From: Sporolactobacillus laevolacticus DSM 442 | GTDB lineage: Bacteria; Bacillota; Bacilli; Bacillales; Sporolactobacillaceae | Assembly: GCF_000497245.1 (NCBI RefSeq) | Contig: NZ_AWTC01000014.1 | Coordinates: forward strand, 1 to 64,000 | Length of the DNA: 64,000 nt | Reading direction: 5' to 3' | In this document: in pieces, positions 19,993-32,256 of the stretch | How positions within the stretch are numbered: position 1 is the first letter of the stretch | Layout of the letters: each line of letters opens with the position of its first letter | The notes under the pieces: model-generated | Seen by the model: the letters and a program-made list of their open reading frames with translations, nothing else | Told to the model about the DNA's origin: nothing | The model's database searches: none | Translations under genes and position numbers: made by a program

Positions 19993-20125
19993 TCTTTATT
20001 TTGGATCATTTAATCTAGCTTTACAAAATCATTAGTGAACATTTTCCAAAAGTATTGTATAGTTTTGTTAGAGGTTCACCCGCACTTGCATTATAGTCAC
20101 CACTTCGCAAACAAGGAGCCCCTAC

Positions 20126-20650
20126 ATGGAATTACATTATCAAGTCACAAAGGAAGACTTCATAGCCTTCAATCTGCAAGCATATCAGAACTCACAAACA
20201 GTGAGACGTTCGATTCTGATACAGCGCTTCCTAGCACTCATTTTCTTGCTCGTCCCTTTAGCTATTTCATTAATAACCGGTGAGTTTCTCCTGGATATGA
20301 TTATTATCTTTTGTATCCTAGGTGTGCTTTGGTTTCTCTTTGCTCACAAGTTCTTTTATCGAAGTGTCAGACGCAACCTTTCCAAAATGATTGATGAACG
20401 AATGGGAAAGAAACTGCCGATCGATGAAACACTCATTTTGACTCAGAAAGGCATTATTAAACGAATGGGACCGGAAGAGGAGTATAAAACAACTTGGAAT
20501 GGCATTGAAAAAATCGCAGAAACAGAGACTCACTTATTTCTTTATGTGAAAGCGATGGCTGCGATTATTGTGCCGAAAAGTGCAATTGGAAGTCAAGAAG
20601 CAACCATCAAATTAAAGCAAATCATTCCGGAATTTGTTCCGAAAGAATAA
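20126..20650 (+). CDS. YcxB-like membrane protein
   Basis: A 174-residue protein with two adjacent transmembrane helices (about 37-53 and 56-72) and a cytoplasmic C-terminal domain of the YcxB-like type, with a KGIIKRMGPEEEYKTTWNGIEKI segment typical of that family and LYVKAMAAIIVPKSAI near the end. Function is unknown. AAGGAG lies upstream of the ATG. It stands between the GH31 terminator and a second small membrane protein gene. Confidence 0.75.
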   Translation: MELHYQVTKEDFIAFNLQAYQNSQTVRRSILIQRFLALIFLLVPLAISLITGEFLLDMIIIFCILGVLWFLFAHKFFYRSVRRNLSKMIDERMGKKLPIDETLILTQKGIIKRMGPEEEYKTTWNGIEKIAETETHLFLYVKAMAAIIVPKSAIGSQEATIKLKQIIPEFVPKE

Positions 20651-20750
20651 ATAGGGTTAACGAAACATTCAGGCATTAATGCGTAAAATTTTTGCCTGTT
20701 TATCCACAAAGATTTTGGAATGATGGAATGAATCTCGAGGAGGAATTTTG

Positions 20751-21155
20751 TTGAAAAGAACTGGTGAAATTGCTTTAACAATCATTGGTGGATGTATTAA
20801 TATCCTGGGTTTGCTTTTAGGTGTTCGTTTGAAAACTATTGACTATGCAGCTTTTAAATCACAATTACAAGCTGCTGGCGCAGAACAGAATTTAAGCAGT
20901 AAGGATATCAACCAGATCATCAACTATGCTCAGACGGCAGGAAGCGTCATCACCGTTTTCACGATCATCATTCTTGTGCTTACTGGAGTCGGTCTGTTTT
21001 TATTGTTGAGAACGAAAAGAGCTAAGACAGCTGGAACGCTTATTCTTATTGCTGGTGTACTGAGCCTTCCTGAGTTGCTTGTCCCAGGCATTTTACTGAT
21101 TATCGCCGGAATCATGGCACTCGTAAGAAAACCGAAAGTTGAATTTACTGAGTAA
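20751..21155 (+). CDS. DUF4064-like small membrane protein
   Basis: A 134-residue protein with an N-terminal hydrophobic segment (EIALTIIGGCINILGLLLG), an extracytoplasmic loop of about 45 residues and two further transmembrane helices ending in a short basic tail. This is the layout of DUF4064 proteins, whose role is unknown. Two adjacent TTG codons can start it; the second is preferred because AGGAGG ends seven bases before it. The gene is followed by a terminator. Confidence 0.72.
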   Translation: MKRTGEIALTIIGGCINILGLLLGVRLKTIDYAAFKSQLQAAGAEQNLSSKDINQIINYAQTAGSVITVFTIIILVLTGVGLFLLLRTKRAKTAGTLILIAGVLSLPELLVPGILLIIAGIMALVRKPKVEFTE

Positions 21156-21162
21156 TTGCCCA

Positions 21163-21190
21163 AAGCCTCTCGCTCAAGGAGAGGTTTTTA
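21163..21190 (+). terminator. Terminator after the DUF4064-like gene
   Basis: GCCTCTC and GGAGAGGT arms (about 21165-21184) around a short loop are followed by TTTTT. Confidence 0.75.
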
Positions 21191-21196
21191 TTTTTA

Positions 21197-21230
21197 TTCA
21201 AGTTACAAAATAAAATATATGTAACTTGAA
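21197..21230. promoter_or_regulatory. Perfect 11-bp inverted repeat, putative operator
   Basis: TTCAAGTTACA (21197-21207) and TGTAACTTGAA (21220-21230) form a perfect inverted repeat with a 12-bp AT-only spacer, just before the SDR gene fragment. It looks like a binding site of a dimeric regulator, possibly an HxlR-type protein, that once controlled the lost SDR gene. Confidence 0.5.
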
Positions 21231-21244
21231 TATTGTATTGATTC

Positions 21245-21364
21245 ATGAGAAGGTTTGGAAAAGTCGATATTCTCGTGAACAATGCCGGAATAATGATCAC
21301 CAAACCGATTGCTGAAGTTACTGAAGAAGACTTTGAACGATTATTTGCGGTTAACGTCATATGA
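21245..21364 (+). pseudogene. Fragment of a short-chain dehydrogenase gene
   Basis: Thirty-nine codons encode the middle of a classical SDR: FGKVDILVNNAGI, the NNAG structural motif, then ITKPIAEVTEEDFERLF and VNVI, after which the frame stops. The Rossmann GxxxGxG start and the catalytic YxxxK part are absent, and no ribosome binding site precedes the ATG. It is a deletion remnant and not a functional gene. A preserved operator-like palindrome lies upstream and a strong terminator follows. Confidence 0.8.
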
Positions 21365-21368
21365 ACAG

Positions 21369-21411
21369 AAAGGACCGGCATGATTCTGAAAGATGATCAT
21401 GCCGGTCCTTT
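21369..21411. terminator. Bidirectional terminator
   Basis: A perfect 16-bp stem AAAGGACCGGCATGAT (21369-21384) with ATCATGCCGGTCCTTT (21396-21411) lies between the SDR fragment and the end of the HxlR-type gene. Confidence 0.85.
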
Positions 21412-21415
21412 GTAT

Positions 21416-21775
21416 TTAATGATTAAGCACACTGTCTTCAAGATAATCTTTCGTGTCCCCGTATTTCTTTATTATATGTTTTTCACCCCATAGACAAAGT
21501 GAAGAGAGGATTTCACTCAGTGTGTCTCCATATTCACTAAGCTCGTATTCAACTTTTGGAGGAACCTGATTATATACAATTCGATTGATGATTCCGTCAT
21601 GTTCCAGTTCGCGCAATTGCTGGGTCAGCATCTTCTGTGTGATGTTCGGAATCAGTCTTTTTAATTCACCAGTTCTTTTTTTACCATGAATCAGGTGGCA
21701 TAAGATCACAGGTTTCCATTTTCCTCCGATCACTTCAAGTGTTGCTTCGACTGAAATGTTATATTTTTTCATCAT
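21416..21775 (-). CDS. HxlR family transcriptional regulator
   Basis: A 119-residue winged-helix protein of the HxlR group: EVIGGKWKPVILCHL (the family's signature near 15-29), KRTGELKRLIPNITQKMLTQQLRELE in the recognition region and VEYELSEYGDTLSEIL after it. Family members sense electrophiles or oxidants, often through an N-terminal cysteine; here a cysteine is at 26, in the helix after GGKWKP. The gene is divergent from an MFS exporter and a GTRC-rich repeat region lies between, so it probably represses that transporter. Confidence 0.88.
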   Translation of the reverse strand: MMKKYNISVEATLEVIGGKWKPVILCHLIHGKKRTGELKRLIPNITQKMLTQQLRELEHDGIINRIVYNQVPPKVEYELSEYGDTLSEILSSLCLWGEKHIIKKYGDTKDYLEDSVLNH

Positions 21776-21788
21776 GCCGAATCTCCTT

Positions 21789-21832
21789 TAGGTACTTTTT
21801 GGTGCCTACAGCACTGAAAAGTGCGTACTTGT
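21789..21832. promoter_or_regulatory. Repeated GGTGCCTAC / AGTGCGTAC elements between HxlR and MFS genes
   Basis: The intergenic gap has GGTAC (21791), GGTGCCTAC (21801-21809) and AGTGCGTACTT (about 21820-21830), direct or near-palindromic copies of a G-TGC-TAC motif. This pattern is typical of operators for HxlR-family repressors divergent from their targets. Assignment is by pattern and position only. Confidence 0.5.
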
Positions 21833-21906
21833 TGCGATGTCACGCACCATTCATAATAGCACGTGCAGGCAAATTTGAACATAACCTTATGAAAGGAGTC
21901 ATACTA

Positions 21907-23118
21907 TTGACATCAAAAAGAAGTTTGTTTTCATTAATATCATTGGCAATTAGTGCCTTTGCCATAGGAACGACTGAATTTATCAGCGTAGGCCTTCTAC
22001 CGTTAATCATGAATGAGTTCCATGTCTCCTATTCACTGGCTGGATTGACGGTTACCTTATATGCGCTTGGTGTTACTATTGGGGCACCGGTTCTGACGTC
22101 TCTAACTGTAAAAATACCAAAAAAGGTATTGTTGATTTTAATCATGGTTGTTTTCATCATCGGTAATTCACTTGCGGTTGGTGCTGTAAGCATCACAATG
22201 CTTCTCATTGCAAGAATCATTTCCTCTTTCTCACATGGCGTGTTTATGTCGATTGGATCGATGATTGCCGCCGATGTTGTTGCACCGAATAAACGGGCAA
22301 GCGCGATTGCGATCATGTTTACAGGTGTCACATTGGCTACAGTAACGGGTGTCCCAATTGGAACATTCATCGGACAGACTTTTGGCTGGAGAGCAGCTTT
22401 TATCATTATTGTTGCGATCGGGCTTCTCGCGTTGATCGCAAATATTTTGCTTGTCCCGTCAAATCTGAAGAAATCCCCAAATATGAAATTCAGGGATCAG
22501 TTTAAATTGATCAAAACCGGACCTCTGTTACTCGTATTTGCGATCACAGCGCTTGGTTACGGAGGAACATTCGTTGTATTCACCTACCTATCACCTCTTT
22601 TGGAGAAGGTCACAGGATTCTCGCCAAGTTCAGTTGCTCTCATTCTATTTATTTATGGCGTTGCGATTGCGGTTGGAAATACTTTTGGCGGCAGAGTATC
22701 GAATAATAATCCGATGAAAGCTTTAATCTATATGTTTCTTTTTCAGTCGGCAGCGATCTTTCTTCTGTTGTTTACGGCTCCGTCGAAAATTTTAGGCGTT
22801 CTAACAGTTATGCTTATGGGCCTGTTCGCTTTTATGAATGTGCCCGGACTGCAACTTTACGCTGTTGTCCTGGCTGAACGGCTTGTTCCTGAAGGTGTGG
22901 ACGTTGCTTCAGCGGTAAACATATCCGCTTTTAACGGTGGAATTGCACTTGGTTCCTTGATCGGCGGCCAGGTTGTCTCTCATCTTGGTTTGATCAACAC
23001 AACGTGGATCGGTGCATTAATGGTTCTGGTCGCAGCCTTCATGAGTATGTGGAGTTACGCATTAGAAAGTAAATCCATGGCAAAGCAAGAAGCTTTACTG
23101 ACTGATGGGAATGCGTAA
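21907..23118 (+). CDS. MFS transporter, AraJ/YdhP-type DHA1 exporter
   Basis: A 403-residue inner-membrane drug:proton antiporter-like protein with 12 predicted helices. SAFAIGTTEFISVGLLP at the N-terminus is the hallmark of the AraJ/YdhP/YdeA group, and GWRAAF with SSFSHGVFMSIG in helix 5 are also typical. The frame is open further upstream, but a TTG at 21907 has GAAAGGAG upstream and starts the canonical N-terminus; the longer version would read into the divergent regulator. Substrate is unknown. It is probably repressed by the divergent HxlR protein. Confidence 0.9.
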   Translation: MTSKRSLFSLISLAISAFAIGTTEFISVGLLPLIMNEFHVSYSLAGLTVTLYALGVTIGAPVLTSLTVKIPKKVLLILIMVVFIIGNSLAVGAVSITMLLIARIISSFSHGVFMSIGSMIAADVVAPNKRASAIAIMFTGVTLATVTGVPIGTFIGQTFGWRAAFIIIVAIGLLALIANILLVPSNLKKSPNMKFRDQFKLIKTGPLLLVFAITALGYGGTFVVFTYLSPLLEKVTGFSPSSVALILFIYGVAIAVGNTFGGRVSNNNPMKALIYMFLFQSAAIFLLLFTAPSKILGVLTVMLMGLFAFMNVPGLQLYAVVLAERLVPEGVDVASAVNISAFNGGIALGSLIGGQVVSHLGLINTTWIGALMVLVAAFMSMWSYALESKSMAKQEALLTDGNA

Positions 23119-23138
23119 TGTATATCGATCTCTTTAAG

Positions 23139-23179
23139 AAACCCCGAACGAGGTATTTAGTCCTCTAATTCGGGGTTTT
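23139..23179. terminator. Bidirectional terminator
   Basis: AAACCCCGAA (23139-23148) pairs with TTCGGGGTTT (23169-23178), flanked by A and T tracts, between the MFS gene and the convergent SDR gene. Confidence 0.85.
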
Positions 23180-23236
23180 ATTTGTTGAAATGGGCAAGGC
23201 TACGTAACTTTACGGCTGATTTTTTTATTTCTAAAA

Positions 23237-23989
23237 TTATCTTCCAAACAACCATCCACCATTAACATTTAGAATTTCACCATTGATAAAGGATGCATCT
23301 GGCGAGGCTAAGTACCAAACGGCTGAAGCTATATCATCAGGCTTTCCAGCACGGCCAACAGGAATTTGTGTTACAGTACGATTTACTCGTTCGTCTGTTA
23401 ATTGACCATTAAAAAAATTCGTTTCGGTAATGAGTCCAGGTGCAATAGCGTTTACTGTAATGCCGTCTATGCTTAACTCACGTGCGGATGCAAAGGTAAG
23501 TCCATGCAGACCTGACTTTGATGCTGCGTAAGCGAGTCCTCCTGCGCTGCTTCCTCCGGTGAATGCACCGATTGAACTGATATTAATAATTCGACCACTC
23601 GGACGTTTTAAAAATGGAGCAACAGCCATGGTCATTAAAAATGCTCCTTTTAAGTTGGCGTCGTTCACTTCGTTCCACACAGATTCTGCTTCGAGTAAAG
23701 GCGTTTGAGTTGTTATTGCTTTACCGGATCCCGCATTATTAACAAGAATATCAATTGATCCAGTACGTTCAACAACTGAATTAATAGCCAGTTCAACATC
23801 AGGCCGATTACCGACATCTGCCTGTATCCAATGAACATTATTTTCTAATCTGAACGCTGCTTCCTTCAGTGCAATTTGTTTTCTTCCTAATATTGTTACA
23901 TCTACTTGATTTTCAACCATCTTTTTTGCTATTGCATAACCAATTCCGCTACTGCCTCCTGTGATGATAGCCACACGCTTCTTTTTCAT
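23237..23989 (-). CDS. SDR family oxidoreductase, FabG-like
   Basis: A 250-residue classical short-chain dehydrogenase. TGGSSGIG (10-17) binds NAD(P)H, NNAG is at about 87-90, the catalytic Ser is in INISSIG, and YAASK carries the Tyr and Lys. The C-terminal NGEILNVNGGW matches FabG-type reductases. The gene is divergent from the frameshifted LysR gene, 120 bp apart, a standard regulator-target pair. Substrate is unknown. Confidence 0.9.
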   Translation of the reverse strand: MKKKRVAIITGGSSGIGYAIAKKMVENQVDVTILGRKQIALKEAAFRLENNVHWIQADVGNRPDVELAINSVVERTGSIDILVNNAGSGKAITTQTPLLEAESVWNEVNDANLKGAFLMTMAVAPFLKRPSGRIINISSIGAFTGGSSAGGLAYAASKSGLHGLTFASARELSIDGITVNAIAPGLITETNFFNGQLTDERVNRTVTQIPVGRAGKPDDIASAVWYLASPDASFINGEILNVNGGWLFGR

Positions 23990-24109
23990 AATTTAACCAC
24001 CTCGTAATGTGATAATTATTGACTTTAATTGTATGATTAAGTGATAAATAAGTGAAATATATATGTTTTATTATATTAATAAGTTATTTGTATTAAAGGA
24101 GTGTGAAAA

Positions 24110-24999
24110 ATGGAACTGAGACAAGTCAGGTATTTTGTTGCTGTAGCTGAAGAGTGTCATTTTGGGCGTGCTGCTCTGAGAATGGGCATTGCCCAGCCGG
24201 CACTCAGTCAACAAATTAAGCAACTCGAACAAGAATAGGTGGAGAACTTTTCACTCGAACGAAGCGCCACGTTTCAATCACTGATGCTGGAAAAGTTTTT
24301 TTTACTGAGGCGAAGCTACTTTTAGCACAAGCTGATCATGCGAAAAAAGCAGTAGAAAATGCGTTTTCAGGAACTGTTGGAGAATTGGTACTTGGGTTTG
24401 TTGAATCTGCAACATGGGCTATTCTTCCGCGAACACTAGCGATCTACCGTAAGCTATATCCTGATGTTAAAATTTCGTTACAGCCACTTCATACAGTAAA
24501 CCAAATCAATGCTATTCGGGATGGAAAAATTGATATTGGGATATTAGGAAAACCTGTAGATGACTCAGCATTGTCTGTTTATACCTTAAGAAAAGAATGC
24601 TATCTGGTCGCTTTACCGGGAGACCATCCTTTGGTTTCGAAAGTCAAAATTCATATAAAGGATCTTGCTCAGGAATCATTTGTGACAACGCTTAGAGCAG
24701 TTGGCGCTCCTTATTATGATTCGATGATTAAGGTTTGTATGGATGAAAATTTCAGCCCATCAATCATTCAAACAGCTACAGATATGCAAACTGTTTTAGC
24801 ACTTGTTTCCTCAGGTATGGGCATCGCGTTGATCAATGAATCAGCAAGACACATACGAGATGATGTGGTGTACAAACCCTTATTTGGGGCGAATCAAATA
24901 GCCTACCAGATGTCTTTTGCATGGCGAACAGGGAATGAGTCTCATGTTATCAAAAACTTTTTGAACGTTATTCAACGACTTTATTTAAGATCGATTTGA
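24110..24999 (+). pseudogene. LysR family regulator with one-base frameshift
   Basis: AAAGGAG and an ATG open a LysR-type helix-turn-helix: [21 protein letters not shown], then [15 protein letters not shown], in register up to a TAG at 24236. Shifting by one base after GAA (24233-24235) restores the usual continuation GGELFTRTKRHVSITDAGK and then the full effector-binding domain to the stop at 24999. GAA-TA-GGT needs one extra base (for example C, giving CTA) to read through. The effector domain is otherwise intact, so the damage is recent, or is a sequencing error. It lies divergent from the SDR gene it probably regulated. Confidence 0.85.
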
Positions 25000-25048
25000 T
25001 CCCATGTACTGATCAGTTTCTATTCGTTTATCAAAAACTTTTTCATGC

Positions 25049-25095
25049 TTGACAAAGGATGGGATCCATTATAAAATTATCTCGAATTCGAGATA
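25049..25095 (+). promoter_or_regulatory. Promoter and MhqR-type operator of the fusion gene
   Basis: TTGACA (25049-25054), 17 bp, TAAAAT (25072-25077), directly followed by the perfect 18-bp palindrome TATCTCGAATTCGAGATA (25078-25095). This matches the inverted repeat known for MhqR, the B. subtilis MarR-type repressor of quinone and catechol response genes. Its position over the start site fits repression. Confidence 0.88.
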
Positions 25096-25124
25096 TTATT
25101 TTCAAAAATGAGGTGGTGGTAAAA

Positions 25125-26975
25125 ATGACTTATCGTTACATTTTTAAGGAAGGTAAATCCTTGAACGAGCCCGTATTTGTATTGCTGCATGGTACTGGGG
25201 GGGATGAATACTCTTTGCTGCCGCTTATGGAGATGATCGCTCCTGATTCTGCTGTCCTTAGCCTACGCGGTAATCGAATTGAAAACGGCATGAATCGTTT
25301 TTTTAATCGCTATCCAGATGGCCGAATTGATGTGGCGGATATGATTGAAGAAACGGAAACCTTGCATCAATTCTTAAATGATTTTGGCAAAGACCATGGA
25401 TTCAATGAGCGAACAATTATTGCATTGGGCTACTCGAATGGTGCCAATATGATCATTAGCCATTTTTATCATTCGAACCCCGTATTCAATGGTGCTCTTT
25501 TATTCCATGGAATGGATTATCGCTCAACTGATCAATTACCGGACTTAAAAGGCGTGTCTATTTTTGCAGCCGCCGGTTTAAACGACCCGTTGGTTTCACA
25601 GCAAGCAACTAGAGAGATGATCGCAAAATTTCAAGCGAGTGGTGCAGACGTTCAGGATTACTGGTCAACTTCCGGTCATCAATTGACAGAAGATGAAATC
25701 TTAGCAGCACAAAAATGGGTCAAATCTATTGATGACGGACAAAATCAAATGAAAAATCTGTTAAAAGAAATCAATCGTTTAGCTCGTTTGTCAAGAGAAA
25801 GGGTGCTGACACAAAAAGAACTTGATATGCAGCGTGAATTACGAGAACAATATCTGAGCATCTTTCGTGGCAGTCTCAAACACCATTTATTGAATATGAA
25901 ATTAATTGACGAAAAAGGTAATGACGTGACGCCACATAAAGTTAAAGTGATCCAGAGCAATTTGGATAAAGAAAAGGATGAGCAATTGGTTAGTAAGTTA
26001 TTAAATAAGATGAAGGAGGTTGAACCGATGAACGAGTTGTTAGGAATTCATCACGTTTCAATGGTCACCAGTGACGCCAAGAAGAATGTTGCATTTTATA
26101 CAAAAGTATTGGGTATGAGGATGGTTAAAAAAACAGTTAATCAGGATGATGTGTCTGTTTATCATTTGTTCTACGCTGATCAAAAAGGAAGTCCAGGAAC
26201 AGATCTGACTTTCTTTGAGTTTCCAGGTACAATGGCAACGAAAAAAGGAACAAACTCCATTTCACGTGTCTCTCTGCGTGTACCAAGTGATCGGTCACTA
26301 GATTTCTGGATCAATCGTTTTGATGAGCTGGGTGTGACCCATGATGAAATAGGTACATTGTTCGGGCATAAAGTGCTTGAATTTGAAGATTTCGATGGAA
26401 CACCGATGCGTTTGGTTTCGGATGAAAAAAACAAGGGTGTATCAGGCGGAACCCCTTGGGAAAAAGGACCGATTCCGATCGAACACGCCATCTATGGATT
26501 AGGTCCGGTTACGCTCACCGTATCACGACTTGCGTTAATTCGTACCTTTTTGAATAATGTCCTTCATTTCAGAGAAGTCGCTCAAGAGGGAGATCTTATT
26601 CTGTTTGAAGTAGGGGAAGGAGGACACGGTGCACAAGTGATTGTTCAGGAAGATGCGTCTCATTCACCAGAAAGACCAGGCTACGGTAGTGTGCATCATG
26701 TTGCTTTTCGGGTGGCGGATCGTGAAGCCCTTAATGAATGGATTAATATTATGAATCAAACGGGGCTGCCGAACTCTGGTTTTGTTGATCGTTTCTATTT
26801 CCAATCTCTTTACGTTCGTGAGTATAACCACATCCTGTTTGAACTTGCAACGGATGGCCCAGGCTTTGCAACCGATGAAGATGAGGATGTACTCGGACAA
26901 AGATTGTCTCTGCCGCCATTTCTGGAAGGAAAACGTGCGTTTATAGAGGAACAGCTAGAACCGTTAGATCTTTAA
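25125..26975 (+). CDS. Three-domain fusion: MhqD-like hydrolase, DUF896, MhqO-like ring-cleaving dioxygenase
   Basis: One 616-codon frame joins three normally separate proteins. Residues 1-205 are an MhqD-like alpha/beta hydrolase: HGTGGDE, Ser104 in GYSNGAN, Asp154 in GLNDP, His185 in SGHQ. Residues 209-277 match DUF896 (YnzC-type small helical proteins): INRLARLSRERVLTQKE, LREQYLSIFRGSLKHHL, and EKGNDVTPHKVK. Residues 302-616 are an MhqO-like two-module glyoxalase/ring-cleaving dioxygenase starting MNELLGIHHVSMV. The ATG of that last part has its own AAGGAGG (26013-26019) eight bases upstream, so a separate 315-residue MhqO may also be made. The start is the ATG after GAGGTGGTGG; an upstream in-frame ATG lies within the promoter. 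It is likely involved in quinone/electrophile detoxification under MhqR. Confidence 0.88.
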   Translation: MTYRYIFKEGKSLNEPVFVLLHGTGGDEYSLLPLMEMIAPDSAVLSLRGNRIENGMNRFFNRYPDGRIDVADMIEETETLHQFLNDFGKDHGFNERTIIALGYSNGANMIISHFYHSNPVFNGALLFHGMDYRSTDQLPDLKGVSIFAAAGLNDPLVSQQATREMIAKFQASGADVQDYWSTSGHQLTEDEILAAQKWVKSIDDGQNQMKNLLKEINRLARLSRERVLTQKELDMQRELREQYLSIFRGSLKHHLLNMKLIDEKGNDVTPHKVKVIQSNLDKEKDEQLVSKLLNKMKEVEPMNELLGIHHVSMVTSDAKKNVAFYTKVLGMRMVKKTVNQDDVSVYHLFYADQKGSPGTDLTFFEFPGTMATKKGTNSISRVSLRVPSDRSLDFWINRFDELGVTHDEIGTLFGHKVLEFEDFDGTPMRLVSDEKNKGVSGGTPWEKGPIPIEHAIYGLGPVTLTVSRLALIRTFLNNVLHFREVAQEGDLILFEVGEGGHGAQVIVQEDASHSPERPGYGSVHHVAFRVADREALNEWINIMNQTGLPNSGFVDRFYFQSLYVREYNHILFELATDGPGFATDEDEDVLGQRLSLPPFLEGKRAFIEEQLEPLDL

Positions 26976-27020
26976 ATGGAAGGCTATGTTCAAATATAAC
27001 GTTGTTTTTTTATCATAATG

Positions 27021-27150
27021 CCGCCTGAATGTGAGACGCCTGTGGATCGTTCCTGTGGATCGCGATCCAGGCAAACCCCGCAGATAAATGTCATATCCGA
27101 GGAGGCTCCCGGATCGCCGGCGGTAAGCGAGCACGTGCAGTGACGGCTAA
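27021..27150 (+). repeat. Dispersed GC-rich intergenic repeat, copy A
   Basis: Contains four blocks in order shared with the copy at 42.4-42.6 kb: GAGACGCCTG (27033), ACCCCGCAGA (27075), GAGGAGGCT (27099) and AAGCGAGCA (27125). CTGTGG and CCCCGCAG can pair. Compared with the other copy it has about 11 extra bases between blocks 1 and 2, with a GGATCGCGATCC palindrome. Similar elements are scattered between genes in many Bacillales, as I remember. No coding potential is seen. It fills most of the 311-bp gap before mhqR. Confidence 0.7.
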
Positions 27151-27217
27151 TAAGCGGTAAAAAAATCAACATCAAACGTTAACAAAACCAAACTGGAAAA
27201 ATAAGTTCTTTGATCAC

Positions 27218-27264
27218 TTGACAACATTAAATAGTCGTTTTATAATTATCTCGAATTCGAAGTA
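27218..27264 (+). promoter_or_regulatory. Promoter and MhqR-type operator of mhqR
   Basis: Consensus TTGACA (27218-27223), 17 bp, TATAAT (27241-27246), then TATCTCGAATTCGAAGTA (27247-27264), the same operator with an imperfect right arm. Its position suggests autorepression. Confidence 0.85.
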
Positions 27265-27286
27265 AATGGATGAAGGGTGAACCATC

Positions 27287-27757
27287 ATGACGCTGAAACC
27301 GCAGGAAAGCATGACTGATGAAAAGGATATTTCTTTGAAACTGCTCGTTGTGCTGACACGTGCTGCCCAGTCAATTCGTAAAGGAATTGAAGAGGATATC
27401 AGACATTACGGATTGAATCAAACGGAATTCGGCGTTCTTGAACTGCTCTACCATAAAGGAGATCAGCCGATTCAGAAAATTGGCGGGAAGATTTTAATCG
27501 CGAGCAGCAGCACAACTTATGTGATTGATCAGCTAGAAAAGAAAAAACTGCTTAAACGAAAACCTTGTCCCAGTGATCGCCGTGTAACCTATGCATCGCT
27601 GACCAAAGAAGGTCAGGAGTTGATGGATAAAATCTTTCCCGACCATAAGGAAGCTGTAAACACGCTTCTTGGCGGACTGACTGCTGCAGAGAAGCTAGAG
27701 TTGATTGGGCAACTAAAAAAGTTAGGTTTGTTCGCTGCTTCATTAAGCGATCGATAA
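27287..27757 (+). CDS. mhqR: MarR family regulator, MhqR-like
   Basis: A 156-residue MarR-type winged-helix repressor: LNQTEFGVLELLYHKGDQPIQ, IGGKILIASSSTTYVIDQLEKKKLLKR for the recognition helix, and the wing CPSDRRVTYASLT. The DRR motif of the wing is intact. It has one cysteine (in KRKPCPSDRR). MhqR in B. subtilis represses mhqA, mhqNOP and mhqED; here the gene lies between two genes carrying the same operator, the fusion gene and the DoxX gene, and has the operator itself, so the assignment is strong. Confidence 0.88.
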   Translation: MTLKPQESMTDEKDISLKLLVVLTRAAQSIRKGIEEDIRHYGLNQTEFGVLELLYHKGDQPIQKIGGKILIASSSTTYVIDQLEKKKLLKRKPCPSDRRVTYASLTKEGQELMDKIFPDHKEAVNTLLGGLTAAEKLELIGQLKKLGLFAASLSDR

Positions 27758-27796
27758 ATGTTTAGTGATTTTGTTAAATTGGTTATTTAATGTCAT

Positions 27797-27810
27797 ATAT
27801 CTCGAATTAA
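27797..27810 (+). promoter_or_regulatory. Partial MhqR-type operator before the DoxX gene
   Basis: The left half TATCTCGAATT (27798-27808) is identical to the other two operators, but the right half is AT-rich and degenerate. TTGTTA (27771-27776) and CATATA (27794-27799) are a weak promoter candidate just upstream. Confidence 0.55.
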
Positions 27811-27850
27811 TAATATATGAATTAAAAATAATATTTATGAGGTGATTGAA

Positions 27851-28249
27851 ATGATGGGTTTAGGTTTATTAATTATTCGTATTGTATTGGGAGTAACTTT
27901 TTCCGGGCATGGTACGCAAAAGTTATTCGGCTGGTTTGGCGGACATGGCATTAAAGGAACCGGTGGCTTCTTTGATTCCATAGGTATTAAACCGGGAATT
28001 GCCATGGCGACTATGGCCGGGCTATCAGAACTGGTTGGCGGGGCTCTGTTCGCAATTGGGCTGTTAACACCGCTTGCCGCTCTTTTGATCACGGGCACAA
28101 TGGTTATTGCCATTGCGACGGTTCATGGGAAGAATGGGTATTGGGTAACTGAGAACGGGTTTGAATACAACTTGCTGATCATTGCTGTTGTTGTTGGTGT
28201 GGCTTTCATAGGTGCCGGCCAATACTCACTAGATGCCTTAATATTTTAA
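27851..28249 (+). CDS. mhqP: DoxX family membrane protein, MhqP-like
   Basis: A 132-residue protein with four predicted helices and the DoxX signature (GVTFSGHGTQKLFGWFGGHG, GGFFDSIGIKP, GLSELVGGALFAIGLLTPL). MhqP of B. subtilis, in the MhqR regulon, is a DoxX protein and may pair with a reductase for quinone or thiol stress. A partial MhqR operator and the adjacent mhqR support this name. The ATG at 27851 follows AGGTGA; a GTG three codons upstream overlaps that site. Confidence 0.83.
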   Translation: MMGLGLLIIRIVLGVTFSGHGTQKLFGWFGGHGIKGTGGFFDSIGIKPGIAMATMAGLSELVGGALFAIGLLTPLAALLITGTMVIAIATVHGKNGYWVTENGFEYNLLIIAVVVGVAFIGAGQYSLDALIF

Positions 28250-28264
28250 GAAATCGTATGAATA

Positions 28265-28314
28265 GAAAAAAGCCTTTCTTGCTCAAATGTACAATGAGCG
28301 AGAAAGGCTTTTTT
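28265..28314. terminator. Bidirectional terminator
   Basis: AAAAAAGCCTTTCT-GCTCA (from 28265) pairs with TGAGC-AGAAAGGCTTTTTT (to 28314), one mismatch, flanked by A and T runs. Confidence 0.88.
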
Positions 28315-28389
28315 GTGTTTTGAGAGGTATTGAACAAAATGGAATTCAGATACAAATGAAAATCGTGAGCATTATTAGACTGGATTTTA

Positions 28390-29196
28390 TTAAAGCACAA
28401 ATTTTTCGACAGCAAAAGCGACACCATCTTCTGTATTGGTTCGCGTCACAAATTGCGCAACTTTCTTTAATGGCTCAATCGCATTGCCCATGGCCACACC
28501 GAGTCCGGCATATTCAATCATTGCCAGATCATTTTCCTCATCACCAAGTGTCATCATTTCTTCTGGTGCGATACCGAGATAGCTGCCAAGAGCTTGGAGA
28601 CCTTTGCCCTTATCTACTTCTTTGTTAAGGATTTCAAGCAAGGATGGTCTTGATTTCATAATTGTATAATTTTCAAAATAAGTATTGGGTATTCTTTCGA
28701 TTGCCGGATCAAGAGTCGTTTGGTCCGTGCAGAATATTGCCTTATTTGCTTTAAAAGGATCCGGTATTTGATCTATATCAATGTCGACGAAAGGAAGCGC
28801 CTTCATGATGTTGCTGTATAAAGAAGGCTTATCCGCCGGATAAGGAGGACAATAAACCTGTTTCAAATCGATAAAATTCATTGGAACACCAAGATTTTGA
28901 CTAAGTTCATAAATAGAAAGAACCTGATCTCTATTAAGTACCTTTTCTGAAATCACTTCTCCTGTATCTGTTTTTTGCACGAGTCCGCCGTTATAAGTAA
29001 TCGCAAAATCCCCATTTTCCGTTAACCCCAGTAGATCTAAATAACTTTTAATGCCAAGAAGCGGCCTTCCGGAGCAAAGCACGACTTTAACACCTTGTTT
29101 TTTTGCTTTTTTCAGTACGTCTTGCGTTTGATCTGAGATTTGTTTCTCATCATTCAGCAGCGTTCCATCAAGATCAATGGCAATCAGTTTTATCAT
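28390..29196 (-). CDS. HAD superfamily Cof-type phosphatase, YidA-like
   Basis: A 268-residue HAD hydrolase of the Cof/IIB group, acting on sugar or cofactor phosphates. The nucleophile motif is AIDLDGTLLND (residues 6-16), motif II is VVLCSGRP, and motif IV is MTLGDEENDLAMIEYAG. The cap is large, as in YidA. The start is the ATG after GGGAGGGAAG; a longer frame has no ribosome binding site and lacks homology. Substrate is not predictable. Confidence 0.88.
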   Translation of the reverse strand: MIKLIAIDLDGTLLNDEKQISDQTQDVLKKAKKQGVKVVLCSGRPLLGIKSYLDLLGLTENGDFAITYNGGLVQKTDTGEVISEKVLNRDQVLSIYELSQNLGVPMNFIDLKQVYCPPYPADKPSLYSNIMKALPFVDIDIDQIPDPFKANKAIFCTDQTTLDPAIERIPNTYFENYTIMKSRPSLLEILNKEVDKGKGLQALGSYLGIAPEEMMTLGDEENDLAMIEYAGLGVAMGNAIEPLKKVAQFVTRTNTEDGVAFAVEKFVL

Positions 29197-29386
29197 TTTC
29201 TTCCCTCCCCAATCACTTCTTTTCTCAGTATACAGCGATCTCACTAAGAAAAAAATAAATAACCTAAGCTATACGAATGACAATGCTTGTCATAAGGGTT
29301 TTCATGATAAACTAAGCAGGCATGCAATAATAAGATTGTAGTGGTTTGCGGAAGTTTATAACAGGTGAGGAAAGGAGCAATCATCG

Positions 29387-29809
29387 ATGGCGGAATTTAT
29401 CGAAAAATGGAATGACAAAGATTCGGTCAACTTTATTCGCAAAGGTTTGATCAAGTATAATGCGAGCTGCTTGCCGGATGAGATTAAATCGCCGCTAGAT
29501 CAGTTCAGTCTGCTAATCAGGGACACGGAAGGCTACCCGTTCGGCGGTGTTACGGGCACCATTTTTTGGCAGCATCTCCATATTGATTTTTTATGGGTCG
29601 ATATCGAGTATAGAGGCAAAGGTTATGGCAGCCAGCTCCTTAAAAAAGCGGAACGTGTAGCCAAAGACAAACATTGCAGAATCATTTTGCTGGATACATT
29701 CAGCTTCCAGGCACCTGACTTCTACAAGAAACACGGTTATGTTGAATACGGAATAATTCAAGACCATCCTAAAGGATTCAGTCAACACTTTTTTCAAAAG
29801 CGCCTTTGA
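29387..29809 (+). CDS. GNAT family N-acetyltransferase
   Basis: A 140-residue acetyltransferase of the short type. Motif A is YRGKGYGSQLLKKAERVA (about 74-91), preceded by FLWVDIE, and LDTFSFQAPDFYKKHGYVEYG completes motif B. GAAAGGAG precedes the ATG. It stands alone between the HAD gene (divergent) and the convergent PAP2 gene. Acceptor substrate is unknown. Confidence 0.87.
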   Translation: MAEFIEKWNDKDSVNFIRKGLIKYNASCLPDEIKSPLDQFSLLIRDTEGYPFGGVTGTIFWQHLHIDFLWVDIEYRGKGYGSQLLKKAERVAKDKHCRIILLDTFSFQAPDFYKKHGYVEYGIIQDHPKGFSQHFFQKRL

Positions 29810-29825
29810 ACTATAAGGGTAAATG

Positions 29826-29862
29826 AAAGCGGCTGATTCCGTGTCAAGGAACCAGCCGCTTT
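29826..29862. terminator. Bidirectional terminator
   Basis: AAAGCGGCTG (29826-29835) pairs with CAGCCGCTTT (29853-29862); inner bases TTCC/GGAA extend the stem. Confidence 0.83.
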
Positions 29863-29890
29863 CTTTGAAGATAAGAATAGGACAGTAAGC

Positions 29891-30424
29891 TTAGAATGGG
29901 ATTACAATTTTCAAGAAACAAATATATCCGGTGAGACTTCCAAGCAGCATACCTGCAAGTACATCTGATGGGTAGTGCAGTCCAAGAAAAATCCTTGAGA
30001 TGGCAACGCTAAAACCTACCGGAAGCAAGATGATGCTGAGTGACGGATGAAACAGAATAAGCGGTATTATAACAGAAAAAATGGCTGTAGTATGTCCTGA
30101 TGGAAAAGAATGGTCCCGCAGCGCGTTAATTGGAAAATTTGTTCCGTCAAGAATTAGATATGGTCTTTTTCGCGGAAAGCACTTTTTAAATATCTGAACG
30201 ACCAGATGGCTTGCGGTTAATGATACGGCGCAAGCAACGGCGGTCAACCGCAATTGTCCTCGTGCGAAGACCAGCAAGAATAACACGAGAAGGATCTCTA
30301 AAATGGCACCTCCGATATTCGTGATGGTGCGGAAATAGGCGTTCCATATTTTTCTCTCAAAATGCTGATTAATCTTTTTGAAGATCCGGCATTCCATCTC
30401 GTATAATGCATGAATGGACAGCAA
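29891..30424 (-). CDS. PAP2 family membrane phosphatase
   Basis: A 177-residue integral membrane phosphatase with five or six helices. The three PAP2 motifs are present: KKCFPRKRP (KxxxxxxRP), FPSGHT with the catalytic His, and SRIFLGLHYPSD. This group includes undecaprenyl-pyrophosphate phosphatases such as BcrC/YwoA, and diacylglycerol-pyrophosphate phosphatases. Recycling of the lipid carrier is plausible but not shown. The start is TTG with GGGGAGGTG seven bases upstream. Confidence 0.87.
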   Translation of the reverse strand: MLSIHALYEMECRIFKKINQHFERKIWNAYFRTITNIGGAILEILLVLFLLVFARGQLRLTAVACAVSLTASHLVVQIFKKCFPRKRPYLILDGTNFPINALRDHSFPSGHTTAIFSVIIPLILFHPSLSIILLPVGFSVAISRIFLGLHYPSDVLAGMLLGSLTGYICFLKIVIPF

Positions 30425-30783
30425 TGCTTTTCACCTCCCCAATGGTTCACAAGCGCTGTAAGAAATGAAGTTCTTACTCATTCATGAGTTCTGAATGGCA
30501 AATCATTCGTTGCGAACGTTCATTTTTTGATCCAATGCGCGTGTTCAATTCAATTATATAGTAAACAATGGCTATTGAGAAAACATAAACATAAGCTAAA
30601 GATATTGTTAATCGATAATTAATTGTCAGCTCTTCATGTTTTGACGACACATACATTATTATATACAAACATTCTCTATATATTTGAAATGAGTTACAGT
30701 TTACAAGATTGTTTGGCAATAGTATACTCGATTCAATGTATGCGGGTGATTTACATAACGGACATATTGGAGGAACTAGGACA
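30425..30783. other. Divergent intergenic region, no gene seen
   Basis: The gap holds the 5' regions of the PAP2 gene and pncB. GTAAGAA-N6-TTCTTAC (30458-30477) and CATTCA-N7-TGAATG (30479-30497) are inverted repeats that could be regulatory sites or part of the PAP2 leader. The pncB reading frame is open into its right end, but without a ribosome binding site before the 30784 start. Confidence 0.4.
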
Positions 30784-32256
30784 ATGGAATCCAGGTTTGA
30801 CGTGAGAAACGATCGAGATCTCACGATGCTGGTTGATTTTTATGAACTCACTATGGGCAATAGTTATCTTGCAGAAGGAGTGGGCGACCAGATTGTTTAT
30901 TTTGATATGTATTTTCGCAGGGTTCCCGATGGTGGCGGGTACTGCATCATGTCAGGTGTGGAGCAGCTGATTGAATACCTCGAAAATCTAAGGTTTACAG
31001 TGGATGATATCAACTATCTGCGTTCTACAAAAGCTTTCTCTGAGAAGTTTTTGGACTATCTCTCCACATTTGAATTTTCTTGCGATGTTTGGGCAATTCC
31101 GGAAGGGTATCCGGTGTTTCCAAATGAACCACTAGTGACCGTGAGAGGTCCGGCGATTCAGGCTCAGCTTCTTGAGACGATGATTCTCGTTACAATCAAT
31201 CATCAGACGCTGATCGCAACGAAAGCAAACCGTATCTGCCGTGTCGCCGGTCATCGTCCTGTTATGGAATTTGGGTCGAGACGTGCACAGGGTTATGACG
31301 GTGCCATTTATGGAGCCCGTGCCGCAGTAATTGGCGGCTGTGCGGCGACGGCGAATACACTCGCGGGCATGATGTTCGACATTCCGGTCTCAGGAACAAT
31401 GGCACATAGCTGGGTTCAGCTGTTTGACAGTGAACTCGAAGCGTTTCGTGCGTGGGCAAACGCTTATCCGGATCAATGCCTTGTTTTGATTGACACTTTT
31501 AATGTATTGAAATCAGGTCTTCCCAATGCCATTCAAGTATTTAAGGAATTACGCGCAAAGGGCCATGAACCGCTAGGCATCCGTATTGACTCCGGGGACA
31601 TTACTTATCTGACGAGAAAAGTTAGAAAAGCATTGGATGATGCGGGTTTTCCGAAAGCTGTGATTGTCATCTCCAACTCACTTGATGAGCACATCATTAA
31701 AGATGTGCTTGCTGAAGGTGCGCAAATAGATTCATTTGGTGTAGGCGAGCGTCTGATTACAGCACGTTCTGAACCTGTGTTCGGCGGTGTCTATAAATTG
31801 GTTGCCGTTGAAAAGGACGGCGAGATTGTTCCGCGAATCAAGATCAGTGAAAATGAAGAAAAGATCACAAATCCTGGATTTAAGAAGATCTACAGGATCT
31901 ATGATCAAGATGCGGATAAAGCGATTGCCGATCTAATCTGTGACAATGATGAAGTAATCGATGAAAGCAAGCCGCTGACCTTGTTTGATCCGGTTTCTAC
32001 CTGGAAAAAGAAACGATTAATTCGTTACAAAGCGGAATTGCTGAGAAAACAAATTTTTGATCATGGGAAATTATGTTATCAGAGTCCTTCGGTTACTGAA
32101 ATCCGTCAATTTGCGCAGGAGCAAGTGCAGCGTCAGTGGGCTGAAGTGCTGCGCTTCGAAAATCCGCATAATTATTTTGTGGATCTTTCGAGAAAGGTTT
32201 GGAACGCCAAACATAATCTCTTGAACAGTTACTCAGAAGAGTTCAGTGGAAAATAA
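30784..32256 (+). CDS. pncB: Nicotinate phosphoribosyltransferase
   Basis: Forms nicotinic acid mononucleotide from nicotinate and PRPP, the salvage route to NAD. From the ATG after TTGGAGG it has 490 residues, the long Gram-positive form. Family signatures are TMLVDFYELTMGNSYL at the N-terminus, EFGSRRAQGYDGAI around the catalytic region, SGTMAHSW and the phosphate-binding GIRIDSGDITYL. In a lar-containing genome this also supplies NaAD, the LarB substrate, though the genes are not linked. Confidence 0.94.
   Translation: MESRFDVRNDRDLTMLVDFYELTMGNSYLAEGVGDQIVYFDMYFRRVPDGGGYCIMSGVEQLIEYLENLRFTVDDINYLRSTKAFSEKFLDYLSTFEFSCDVWAIPEGYPVFPNEPLVTVRGPAIQAQLLETMILVTINHQTLIATKANRICRVAGHRPVMEFGSRRAQGYDGAIYGARAAVIGGCAATANTLAGMMFDIPVSGTMAHSWVQLFDSELEAFRAWANAYPDQCLVLIDTFNVLKSGLPNAIQVFKELRAKGHEPLGIRIDSGDITYLTRKVRKALDDAGFPKAVIVISNSLDEHIIKDVLAEGAQIDSFGVGERLITARSEPVFGGVYKLVAVEKDGEIVPRIKISENEEKITNPGFKKIYRIYDQDADKAIADLICDNDEVIDESKPLTLFDPVSTWKKKRLIRYKAELLRKQIFDHGKLCYQSPSVTEIRQFAQEQVQRQWAEVLRFENPHNYFVDLSRKVWNAKHNLLNSYSEEFSGK

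What the first reader, a model, noticed from the sequence alone, without database searches (positions are those of the whole stretch)
25125..26975. MhqD-DUF896-MhqO three-domain fusion under an MhqR operator
One frame joins an alpha/beta hydrolase with complete Ser-His-Asp triad, a DUF896 (YnzC-type) small helical module and a two-module ring-cleaving dioxygenase. MhqD and MhqO are separate proteins in B. subtilis, both induced by quinones and catechols; I know no protein where DUF896, a domain of unknown role, is placed between them. If real, the fusion links DUF896 to electrophile detoxification and predicts that the two enzymes act on one intermediate.
Basis: partly seen in the sequence, partly recalled or inferred. 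Interest (0 to 1): 0.85.

Follow-up and report, generated by a model that had tools for sequence, protein, structure and literature searches.

The report
DUF896 fused into quinone-detox enzymes
Some Sporolactobacillus bacteria make one protein out of two quinone-breaking enzymes with a small domain of unknown role between them, and a distant bacterial group has separately fused the same domain to a sister enzyme under the same kind of switch, which ties this widespread mystery domain to quinone detoxification.

Summary
Window 25125-26975 (+) is one 616-codon frame (69.7 kDa): MhqD-type hydrolase, DUF896, ring-cleaving dioxygenase. It is no assembly error: the same fusion, 67-69% identical, is in three more Sporolactobacillus genomes (4 of 15 in the genus). 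A perfect 18-bp MhqR-type palindrome follows its -10 box; a second copy precedes a MarR gene whose best solved relative is S. aureus MhqR. Correction: the dioxygenase is nearer MhqE than MhqO. S. kofuensis has mhqD and mhqE separate without DUF896, probably a later loss. Beyond the finding: in the order of an Acholeplasmataceae genome, 14 of 160 genomes have DUF896 above cut-off, all 14 beside an MhqO-type dioxygenase (13 in one readable frame), with an MhqR-type palindrome 23-36 nt upstream in 14 of 14. So DUF896 joined MhqR-type dioxygenase operons at least twice, at different ends. Elsewhere the printed DUF896 frames were at most 183 aa, apart from two of 243 aa with a stop inside. Most likely a one-chain, two-step quinone detoxifier with DUF896 as helical docking module; enzyme pair and switch are well supported, the DUF896 role is inferred.

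The parts
25049..25077 (+). sigma-70-type promoter of the fusion gene: TTGACA (25049-25054), 17 nt, TAAAAT (25072-25077)
   Evidence: 11 of 12 consensus positions; letters checked
25078..25095 (.). MhqR-type operator, perfect 18-bp palindrome TATCTCGAATTCGAGATA, directly after the -10 box
   Evidence: motif and place as for the S. aureus MhqR operator (-6 to +12) in PMC6798810
25110..25127 (+). ribosome-binding site GAGGTGG and start codon ATG (25125)
   Evidence: read
25125..25739 (+). MhqD-type alpha/beta hydrolase domain (residues 1-205); triad S104, D154, H185
25758..25946 (+). DUF896 (PF05979) helical hairpin, residues 212-274
   Evidence: helices 189-225 and 230-257 in the model; 2hep YnzC 2.8e-11
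25947..26027 (+). helical linker to the dioxygenase (residues 275-301)
   Evidence: helix 270-296 in the model; changes faster than DUF896 and the dioxygenase
26013..26030 (+). internal ribosome-binding site AAGGAGG (26013-26019) and in-frame ATG (26028-26030) for a free dioxygenase
   Evidence: only in-frame start after an SD-like motif in G000 and G015, one of two in G013; no start codon there in G011
26028..26975 (+). MhqE-type two-module ring-cleaving dioxygenase domain (residues 302-616) and stop TAA; metal ligands H310, H525, E573 by alignment
27218..27264 (+). mhqR promoter (TTGACA 27218, TATAAT 27241-27246) and second operator TATCTCGAATTCGAAGTA (27247-27264)
27287..27757 (+). mhqR-type MarR repressor
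   Evidence: best solved relative 9qdr = S. aureus MhqR, 2.2e-29; quinone-pocket F39, E43, H111 align with F48, E52, H120, F11 with L20 (chain numbering shifted by 3, my count)
27842..28249 (+). DoxX-family gene after mhqR (mhqP-like partner is a recalled guess)
   Evidence: Pfam DoxX 4.5e-23; next to mhqR also in S. shoreae and S. kofuensis

Best explanation
The gene encodes one chain that detoxifies quinones or hydroquinones in two steps. MhqR sits on the palindrome at the transcript start and lets go when a quinone binds it (shown in print for S. aureus MhqR, inferred here). The C-terminal MhqE-type dioxygenase opens the ring and the N-terminal MhqD-type hydrolase cuts the ring-cleavage product (chemistry inferred from the families). 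DUF896, a two-helix hairpin whose first helix runs on from the last helix of the hydrolase in the model, is a docking and spacing module that holds hydrolase and dioxygenase together; in Acholeplasma-type bacteria the same module on an MhqO-type dioxygenase would do this between chains. An internal ribosome-binding site probably also yields free dioxygenase in three of the four species. Shown: one frame, conserved fusion, operators, intact catalytic residues, selection on DUF896, second independent fusion. Inferred: catalysis, order of steps, docking role, use of the internal start.
For: Fusion open in 4 of 15 genus genomes, 615-617 residues. MhqR-type sites before the fusion and before mhqR in the four (0-3 mismatches but for a 4-mismatch site before mhqR of G011, read); window MhqR nearest to S. 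aureus MhqR. 73 of 80 fetched loci hold an MhqD-type frame in the same locus as the dioxygenase (the two fused ones included; the fetch patterns came from both enzymes, so biased upward). PMC12673573 proposes MhqO and MhqD as consecutive extradiol cleavage and C-C hydrolysis. DUF896 under purifying selection: G013-G015 dN 0.075, dS 1.01; dioxygenase 0.059, 0.93; hydrolase 0.140, 0.93; linker 0.136, 0.67. Second fusion: 14 of 14 above-cut-off DUF896 in 160 genomes lie beside an MhqO-type dioxygenase (13 in one readable frame), MhqR-type palindrome upstream in 14 of 14, operon mhqO-DUF896, mhqE, mhqR, mhqD in 4 of 4 long loci. Models: mean pLDDT 93.2 and 87.5, helical hairpin in both.
Against: S. 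kofuensis keeps the operator and both enzymes without DUF896 between them; five of 15 genus genomes have no DUF896 at all. pTM 0.64: the arrangement of the domains is not fixed by the model. DUF896 is found in 343 of 398 Bacilli genomes, mostly as a short protein in the rows printed, and YnzC of B. pumilus is listed in the LexA/SOS regulon (PMC3896406, passage), so its stand-alone role need not be quinone-related. No stand-alone DUF896 gene was found in the 80 fetched mhq loci, flanks up to 8 kb. Paenibacillus MhqO was inactive in vitro.
Confidence: 0.55

Rival explanations
1. Passive linker: a DUF896 gene happened to lie between mhqD and mhqE and was read through; the enzymes work as two separate modules and DUF896 only joins them.
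For: The ribosome-binding site and start codon of a separate dioxygenase survive inside the fused frame in 3 of 4 species; S. kofuensis lacks DUF896 there; the first junction and the linker vary most.
Confidence: 0.25
2. Turnover or stress tag: DUF896 hands the enzymes to a stress-response partner, for example the MecA-ClpCP protease, when quinones damage proteins.
For: A DUF896 protein is listed in the S. mutans MecA interactome, enriched in one of three experiments (PMC10845952, passage); in S. aureus under citral a DUF896 gene tops the induced list (log2 9.7), which also holds clpC, mcsB and an alpha/beta hydrolase (PMC10213633, passage; that this hydrolase is MhqD is recalled).
Against: Single enrichment; a general stress list that includes chaperones; nothing here tests binding.
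Confidence: 0.15
3. Assembly or sequencing artefact that joins three genes.
For: The neighbouring LysR gene is broken by a frameshift in this assembly, so indel errors are thinkable.
Against: The same continuous frame in three other genomes, 67-69% identical.
Confidence: 0.01
4. The two enzymes serve different substrates and are joined only for equal dosage.
For: mhqE and mhqD are one operon in S. aureus, where the passages read show no shared intermediate (PMC6798810).
Against: Both enzymes lie together in loci of several phyla, and extradiol cleavage followed by C-C hydrolysis has been proposed.
Confidence: 0.04

Closest known systems
mhqRED operon of Staphylococcus aureus and the MhqR regulon (mhqED, mhqNOP) of Bacillus subtilis
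   Same: MhqR-type repressor, same 9-9 bp palindrome at the transcript start, MhqE-type dioxygenase and MhqD-type hydrolase
   Different: Separate genes there and no DUF896 described in the passages read; here one chain with DUF896 between the enzymes, and mhqR has its own promoter downstream
mhqPOD cluster of Paenibacillus sp. B2 (PMC12673573)
   Same: Dioxygenase and C-C hydrolase next to each other with a MarR regulator, proposed as consecutive steps
   Different: Separate genes, dioxygenase called MhqO, azoreductase and MFS transporter instead of DoxX; DUF896 not mentioned in the parts read (1-3 of 4)
YnzC / UPF0291 (DUF896) of Bacillus subtilis, PDB 2hep, 3bhp
   Same: The domain in the middle of the fusion and at the end of the Acholeplasma-type dioxygenase
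   Different: YnzC is a stand-alone protein, listed in the SOS regulon of B. pumilus; here it is part of quinone enzymes behind an MhqR-type operator
S. kofuensis mhqD-mhqE locus (L052)
   Same: Same operator, order, mhqR and DoxX; enzymes 69% and 83.5% identical to the window's
   Different: Two genes 38 nt apart, DUF896 absent between them, a stand-alone DUF896 17 kb away

Membership tests
DUF896 / UPF0291 (PF05979) | Pfam score above the curated cut-off over the whole domain | tested here: met
   77.2 bits against 24.2, profile 2-64 of 64
DUF896 / UPF0291 (PF05979) | Two-helix hairpin | tested here: met
   Helices 189-225 and 230-257 in the model; the part was not searched alone against solved folds
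MhqD (NCBIfam NF047577 equivalog) | Score above the equivalog cut-off | tested here: not met
   164.2 bits against 325; so called MhqD-type, not MhqD
MhqD-type alpha/beta hydrolase | Ser-His-Asp triad and fold | tested here: met
MhqE/MhqO-type ring-cleaving dioxygenase | His-His-Glu metal ligands as in 3OAJ | tested here: met
   H310, H525, E573 by alignment
MhqE/MhqO-type ring-cleaving dioxygenase | Ring-cleavage activity on hydroquinone or catechol | not testable with these tools
   No assay
MhqR regulon | Palindromic operator at the promoter | tested here: met
   compared
MhqR regulon | MhqR repressor with the quinone pocket | tested here: met
   9qdr best of 55 solved sequences; three of four pocket residues kept, F11 is leucine
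MhqR regulon | Induction by quinones | not testable with these tools
   No expression data at hand; one library search for Sporolactobacillus and quinone listed nothing on it among the 5 of 18 papers shown

The most novel reading that the evidence does not exclude
DUF896 is a dedicated partner module of MhqE/MhqO ring-cleaving dioxygenases: where it stands alone (YnzC and its kin in most Bacilli) it binds these enzymes, or a common partner of theirs, from outside, and the two fusions are frozen versions of that contact.
Probability: 0.25. Interest if true: 0.82.

Novelty: new variant of a known kind. Interest (0 to 1): 0.66.

Why it matters
DUF896 occurs in most Bacilli genomes examined (343 of 398), a pneumococcal homologue is treated as potentially essential in PMC4143570 (passage), and its Pfam entry still says unknown function. 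Two independent fusions to dioxygenases behind MhqR-type operators give it a first concrete partner and a testable prediction: stand-alone DUF896 proteins should touch quinone-detoxifying enzymes. The one-chain hydrolase-dioxygenase also makes the supposed shared intermediate of mhqE and mhqD testable with a single purified protein.

Tried and rejected
Assembly artefact: rejected by three relatives. Recent internal duplication of the genome's own DUF896: its stand-alone copy is only 46% identical to the fused one, so not recent. Fusions elsewhere: a profile of the Acholeplasma-type fusion (A4) searched in 398 phylum genomes at E 1e-60 gave 16 genomes with matches; all 34 matches end at profile position 298-329 of 397, none reaches DUF896 (weaker matches were not asked for). 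Plasmids: 10 of the 15 rows listed (of 512 records) carry annotation, each with separate genes. Long DUF896 frames: the printed rows (list cut short) reach 143 aa at most; (80 genomes that I chose for weaker scores) matches over the cut-off lie in frames of 57-183 aa, apart from two of 243 aa with a stop inside the match (G511, G684), not looked at further; three matches below cut-off in frames of 189, 551 and 1062 aa were dropped, as was G874 (below cut-off). The four fused rows as one clade without S. kofuensis: not rejected (AU p 0.149, 0.080, 0.055), so the loss in S. kofuensis is likely, not proven. Remnant of the linker in the S. kofuensis spacer: no signal once the ribosome-binding site is left out, 459 of 2000 shuffles score as high. 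Structured RNA at the internal start: none, z 0.25. Rfam, window 20000-32000: no match. In one search one of 17 stand-alone rows (L145) was a wrong short frame and is worthless. No paper on such a fusion in the held library: searches (listings; DUF896 is in 3 papers, UPF0291 or ynzC in 12 listed; passages of 6 papers read). The placement of the domains in the models was not analysed, and the second model was not searched against solved folds.

Full report

It is real. In 26 genomes of the family, searched with the whole protein, three others carry it full length in one open frame: G015 (Sporolactobacillus shoreae), G013 (unnamed) and G011 (S. mangiferae), at 69, 68 and 67% identity; the names come from matching contig lengths. 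The four are 615-617 residues long with one internal single-codon gap. So 4 of 15 genomes of the genus hold it. Of 397 genomes drawn from the order, only G000, G015 and G011 gave full-length matches among the rows printed, which are cut short but sorted by score (G013 was not drawn). The catalytic residues are invariant in the four: S104, D154, H185, and H310, H525, E573, which align with His11, His218 and Glu266 named as ligands in 3OAJ by PMC12673573 (parts 1-3 of 4 read).

Which dioxygenase. The domain scores 292 bits to 1zsw and 176 to B. subtilis MhqO (3oaj). The dioxygenase of Staphylococcus simiae that lies between a MarR gene and an MhqD-type gene, the layout of mhqRED, behaves alike: 228 and 164 bits. 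The better name is MhqE-type; B. subtilis MhqE itself was not at hand. The MhqD label is approximate too, as the NCBIfam equivalog cut-off is not reached.

Control. A perfect palindrome TATCTCGAATTCGAGATA at 25078-25095 follows the -10 box; a copy with two mismatches at 27247-27264 follows the -10 box of the MarR gene 27287-27757. Chance gives 0.09 matches in the window. In S. aureus the MhqR operator is TATCTCGAA-aTCGAaATA at -6 to +12 (PMC6798810, passages). Against this, the control pattern (read backwards) also finds 1-3 sites per strand in those four genomes at 3 mismatches, and none in G000, so a 3- or 4-mismatch site counts only because of its place. The MarR protein has S. aureus MhqR (9qdr) as its best solved relative, 2.2e-29; by that alignment and the residue list of PMC12893000 (abstract and passages) F39, E43 and H111 of the quinone pocket are kept, F11 is leucine.

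An internal start. AAGGAGG at 26013-26019 and ATG at 26028 sit in frame where a separate dioxygenase gene would begin. By a motif scan G000 and G015 have no other in-frame start after an SD-like motif; G013 has one more; G011 keeps AAGGAGG but has no start codon there. The Lys-Glu codons are AAG GAG in all four although AAA and GAA are commoner in these genes; the naive product of the four codon probabilities is 7.4e-5, which ignores shared descent. I infer that free dioxygenase is made beside the fusion in three species; this is untested.

History. S. kofuensis (G010) has mhqD and mhqE 38 nt apart, no DUF896 between them, and a stand-alone DUF896 17 kb away. Its hydrolase is 69% and its dioxygenase 83.5% identical to the window's, against 58-61% and 77-79% for the other fusions. 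Trees put it beside G000: 89/53 (dioxygenase), 98/88 (hydrolase), 95/91 (both); the AU tests do not reject the four fusions as one clade (p 0.149, 0.080, 0.055). A single fusion and a later loss of DUF896 in S. kofuensis is the likelier history. In the genus, G011, G013 and G015 have no DUF896 but the fused one; G000 has both; six genomes have only a stand-alone one; five have none.

DUF896 matters to the protein. Between G013 and G015 dN is 0.075 and dS 1.01 in DUF896, 0.059 and 0.93 in the dioxygenase, 0.140 and 0.93 in the hydrolase, 0.136 and 0.67 in the linker (NG86, one pair, the other pairs are mostly saturated).

A second, independent fusion. Looking through loci of mhq enzymes with a DUF896 profile turned up, besides the two Sporolactobacillus fusions, four of 80 loci, from Haploplasma modicum and three Acholeplasma-type MAGs, in which an MhqO-type dioxygenase ends in DUF896 (Pfam 1.8e-12 to 4.2e-15; for L094 3oaj 288 bits against 1zsw 159). 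In the order of one of them, 14 of 160 genomes have DUF896 above the cut-off, these four included, and one more below it. All 14 lie beside an MhqO-type dioxygenase: 13 as C-terminal domain of a single frame of about 400 aa, the fourteenth (L177) in a locus with a masked stretch where one frame cannot be shown; 13 of 14 are followed by a second dioxygenase gene, one by mhqD. A palindrome TATTTCGAATTCGAAATA or close to it lies 23-36 nt before the start in 14 of 14, two or three mismatches from the window's operator; 0 of 500 plain shuffles did as well in 13, 1 of 500 in one. As positive control the two Staphylococcus loci tested have sites with 2-3 mismatches around mhqR; as negative result three of four other Acholeplasma-type loci and both Listeria loci tested have none within 3 mismatches. 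The four loci with long flanks have the order mhqO-DUF896, mhqE, mhqR, mhqD. The model of L094 (17 rows, mean pLDDT 87.5, pTM 0.79) shows the same hairpin, 320-345 and 350-374. Different partner, different end of the chain, different order of bacteria: a separate event.

How special. DUF896 is common in Bacilli (343 of 398 genomes) and in the rows I could see it is otherwise a short protein (with the limits told under Tried and rejected). The second fusion was found by looking, not predicted beforehand, so no probability is attached.

Print. DUF896 is named in three papers of the library: a DUF896 gene is the top induced gene of S. aureus under citral (log2 9.7; PMC10213633), YnzC is in the LexA/SOS rows of B. 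pumilus (PMC3896406), a DUF896 protein is in the MecA interactome of S. mutans in one experiment (PMC10845952) (passages). The citral list also holds chaperones and Clp genes, so it is weak support. Under the names UPF0291 or YnzC, passages of three more papers were read: slightly raised under aeration in L. rhamnosus, seen only under gliotoxin in E. faecalis, and a pneumococcal homologue treated as essential. None of these passages mentions a fusion.

Verdict. Observation confirmed, partner renamed, interpretation strengthened in its main point. It works like mhqED with DUF896 built in; whether DUF896 docks, stabilises or tags is open. I score it a new variant of a known kind, interest 0.66.

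Noticed in passing
window 27008-27170: The spacer between the fusion and mhqR is a copy of an interspersed repeat: 31 places in the genome, itself included, at 72-100% identity; no Rfam match.
   Followed up: partly
window 24110-24999: A LysR-type (AlsR-like) regulator gene upstream is broken by a frameshift in this assembly: the HTH part (read by eye) and the ligand-binding part (24385-24999) lie in different frames.
   Followed up: partly
window 27842-28249; L050, L051, L052: A DoxX gene follows mhqR in the window, S. shoreae and S. kofuensis but was not found near mhqR in S. mangiferae.
   Followed up: partly
G014, G017, G018, G020, G022: Five of 15 Sporolactobacillus genomes have no DUF896 match at all, so the domain is dispensable in this genus.
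   Followed up: no
L053, L055, L056, L058, L059, L062, L084: Seven of eight Listeria loci hold two dioxygenase genes in a row before mhqD, the first a divergent paralogue of unknown role.
   Followed up: no
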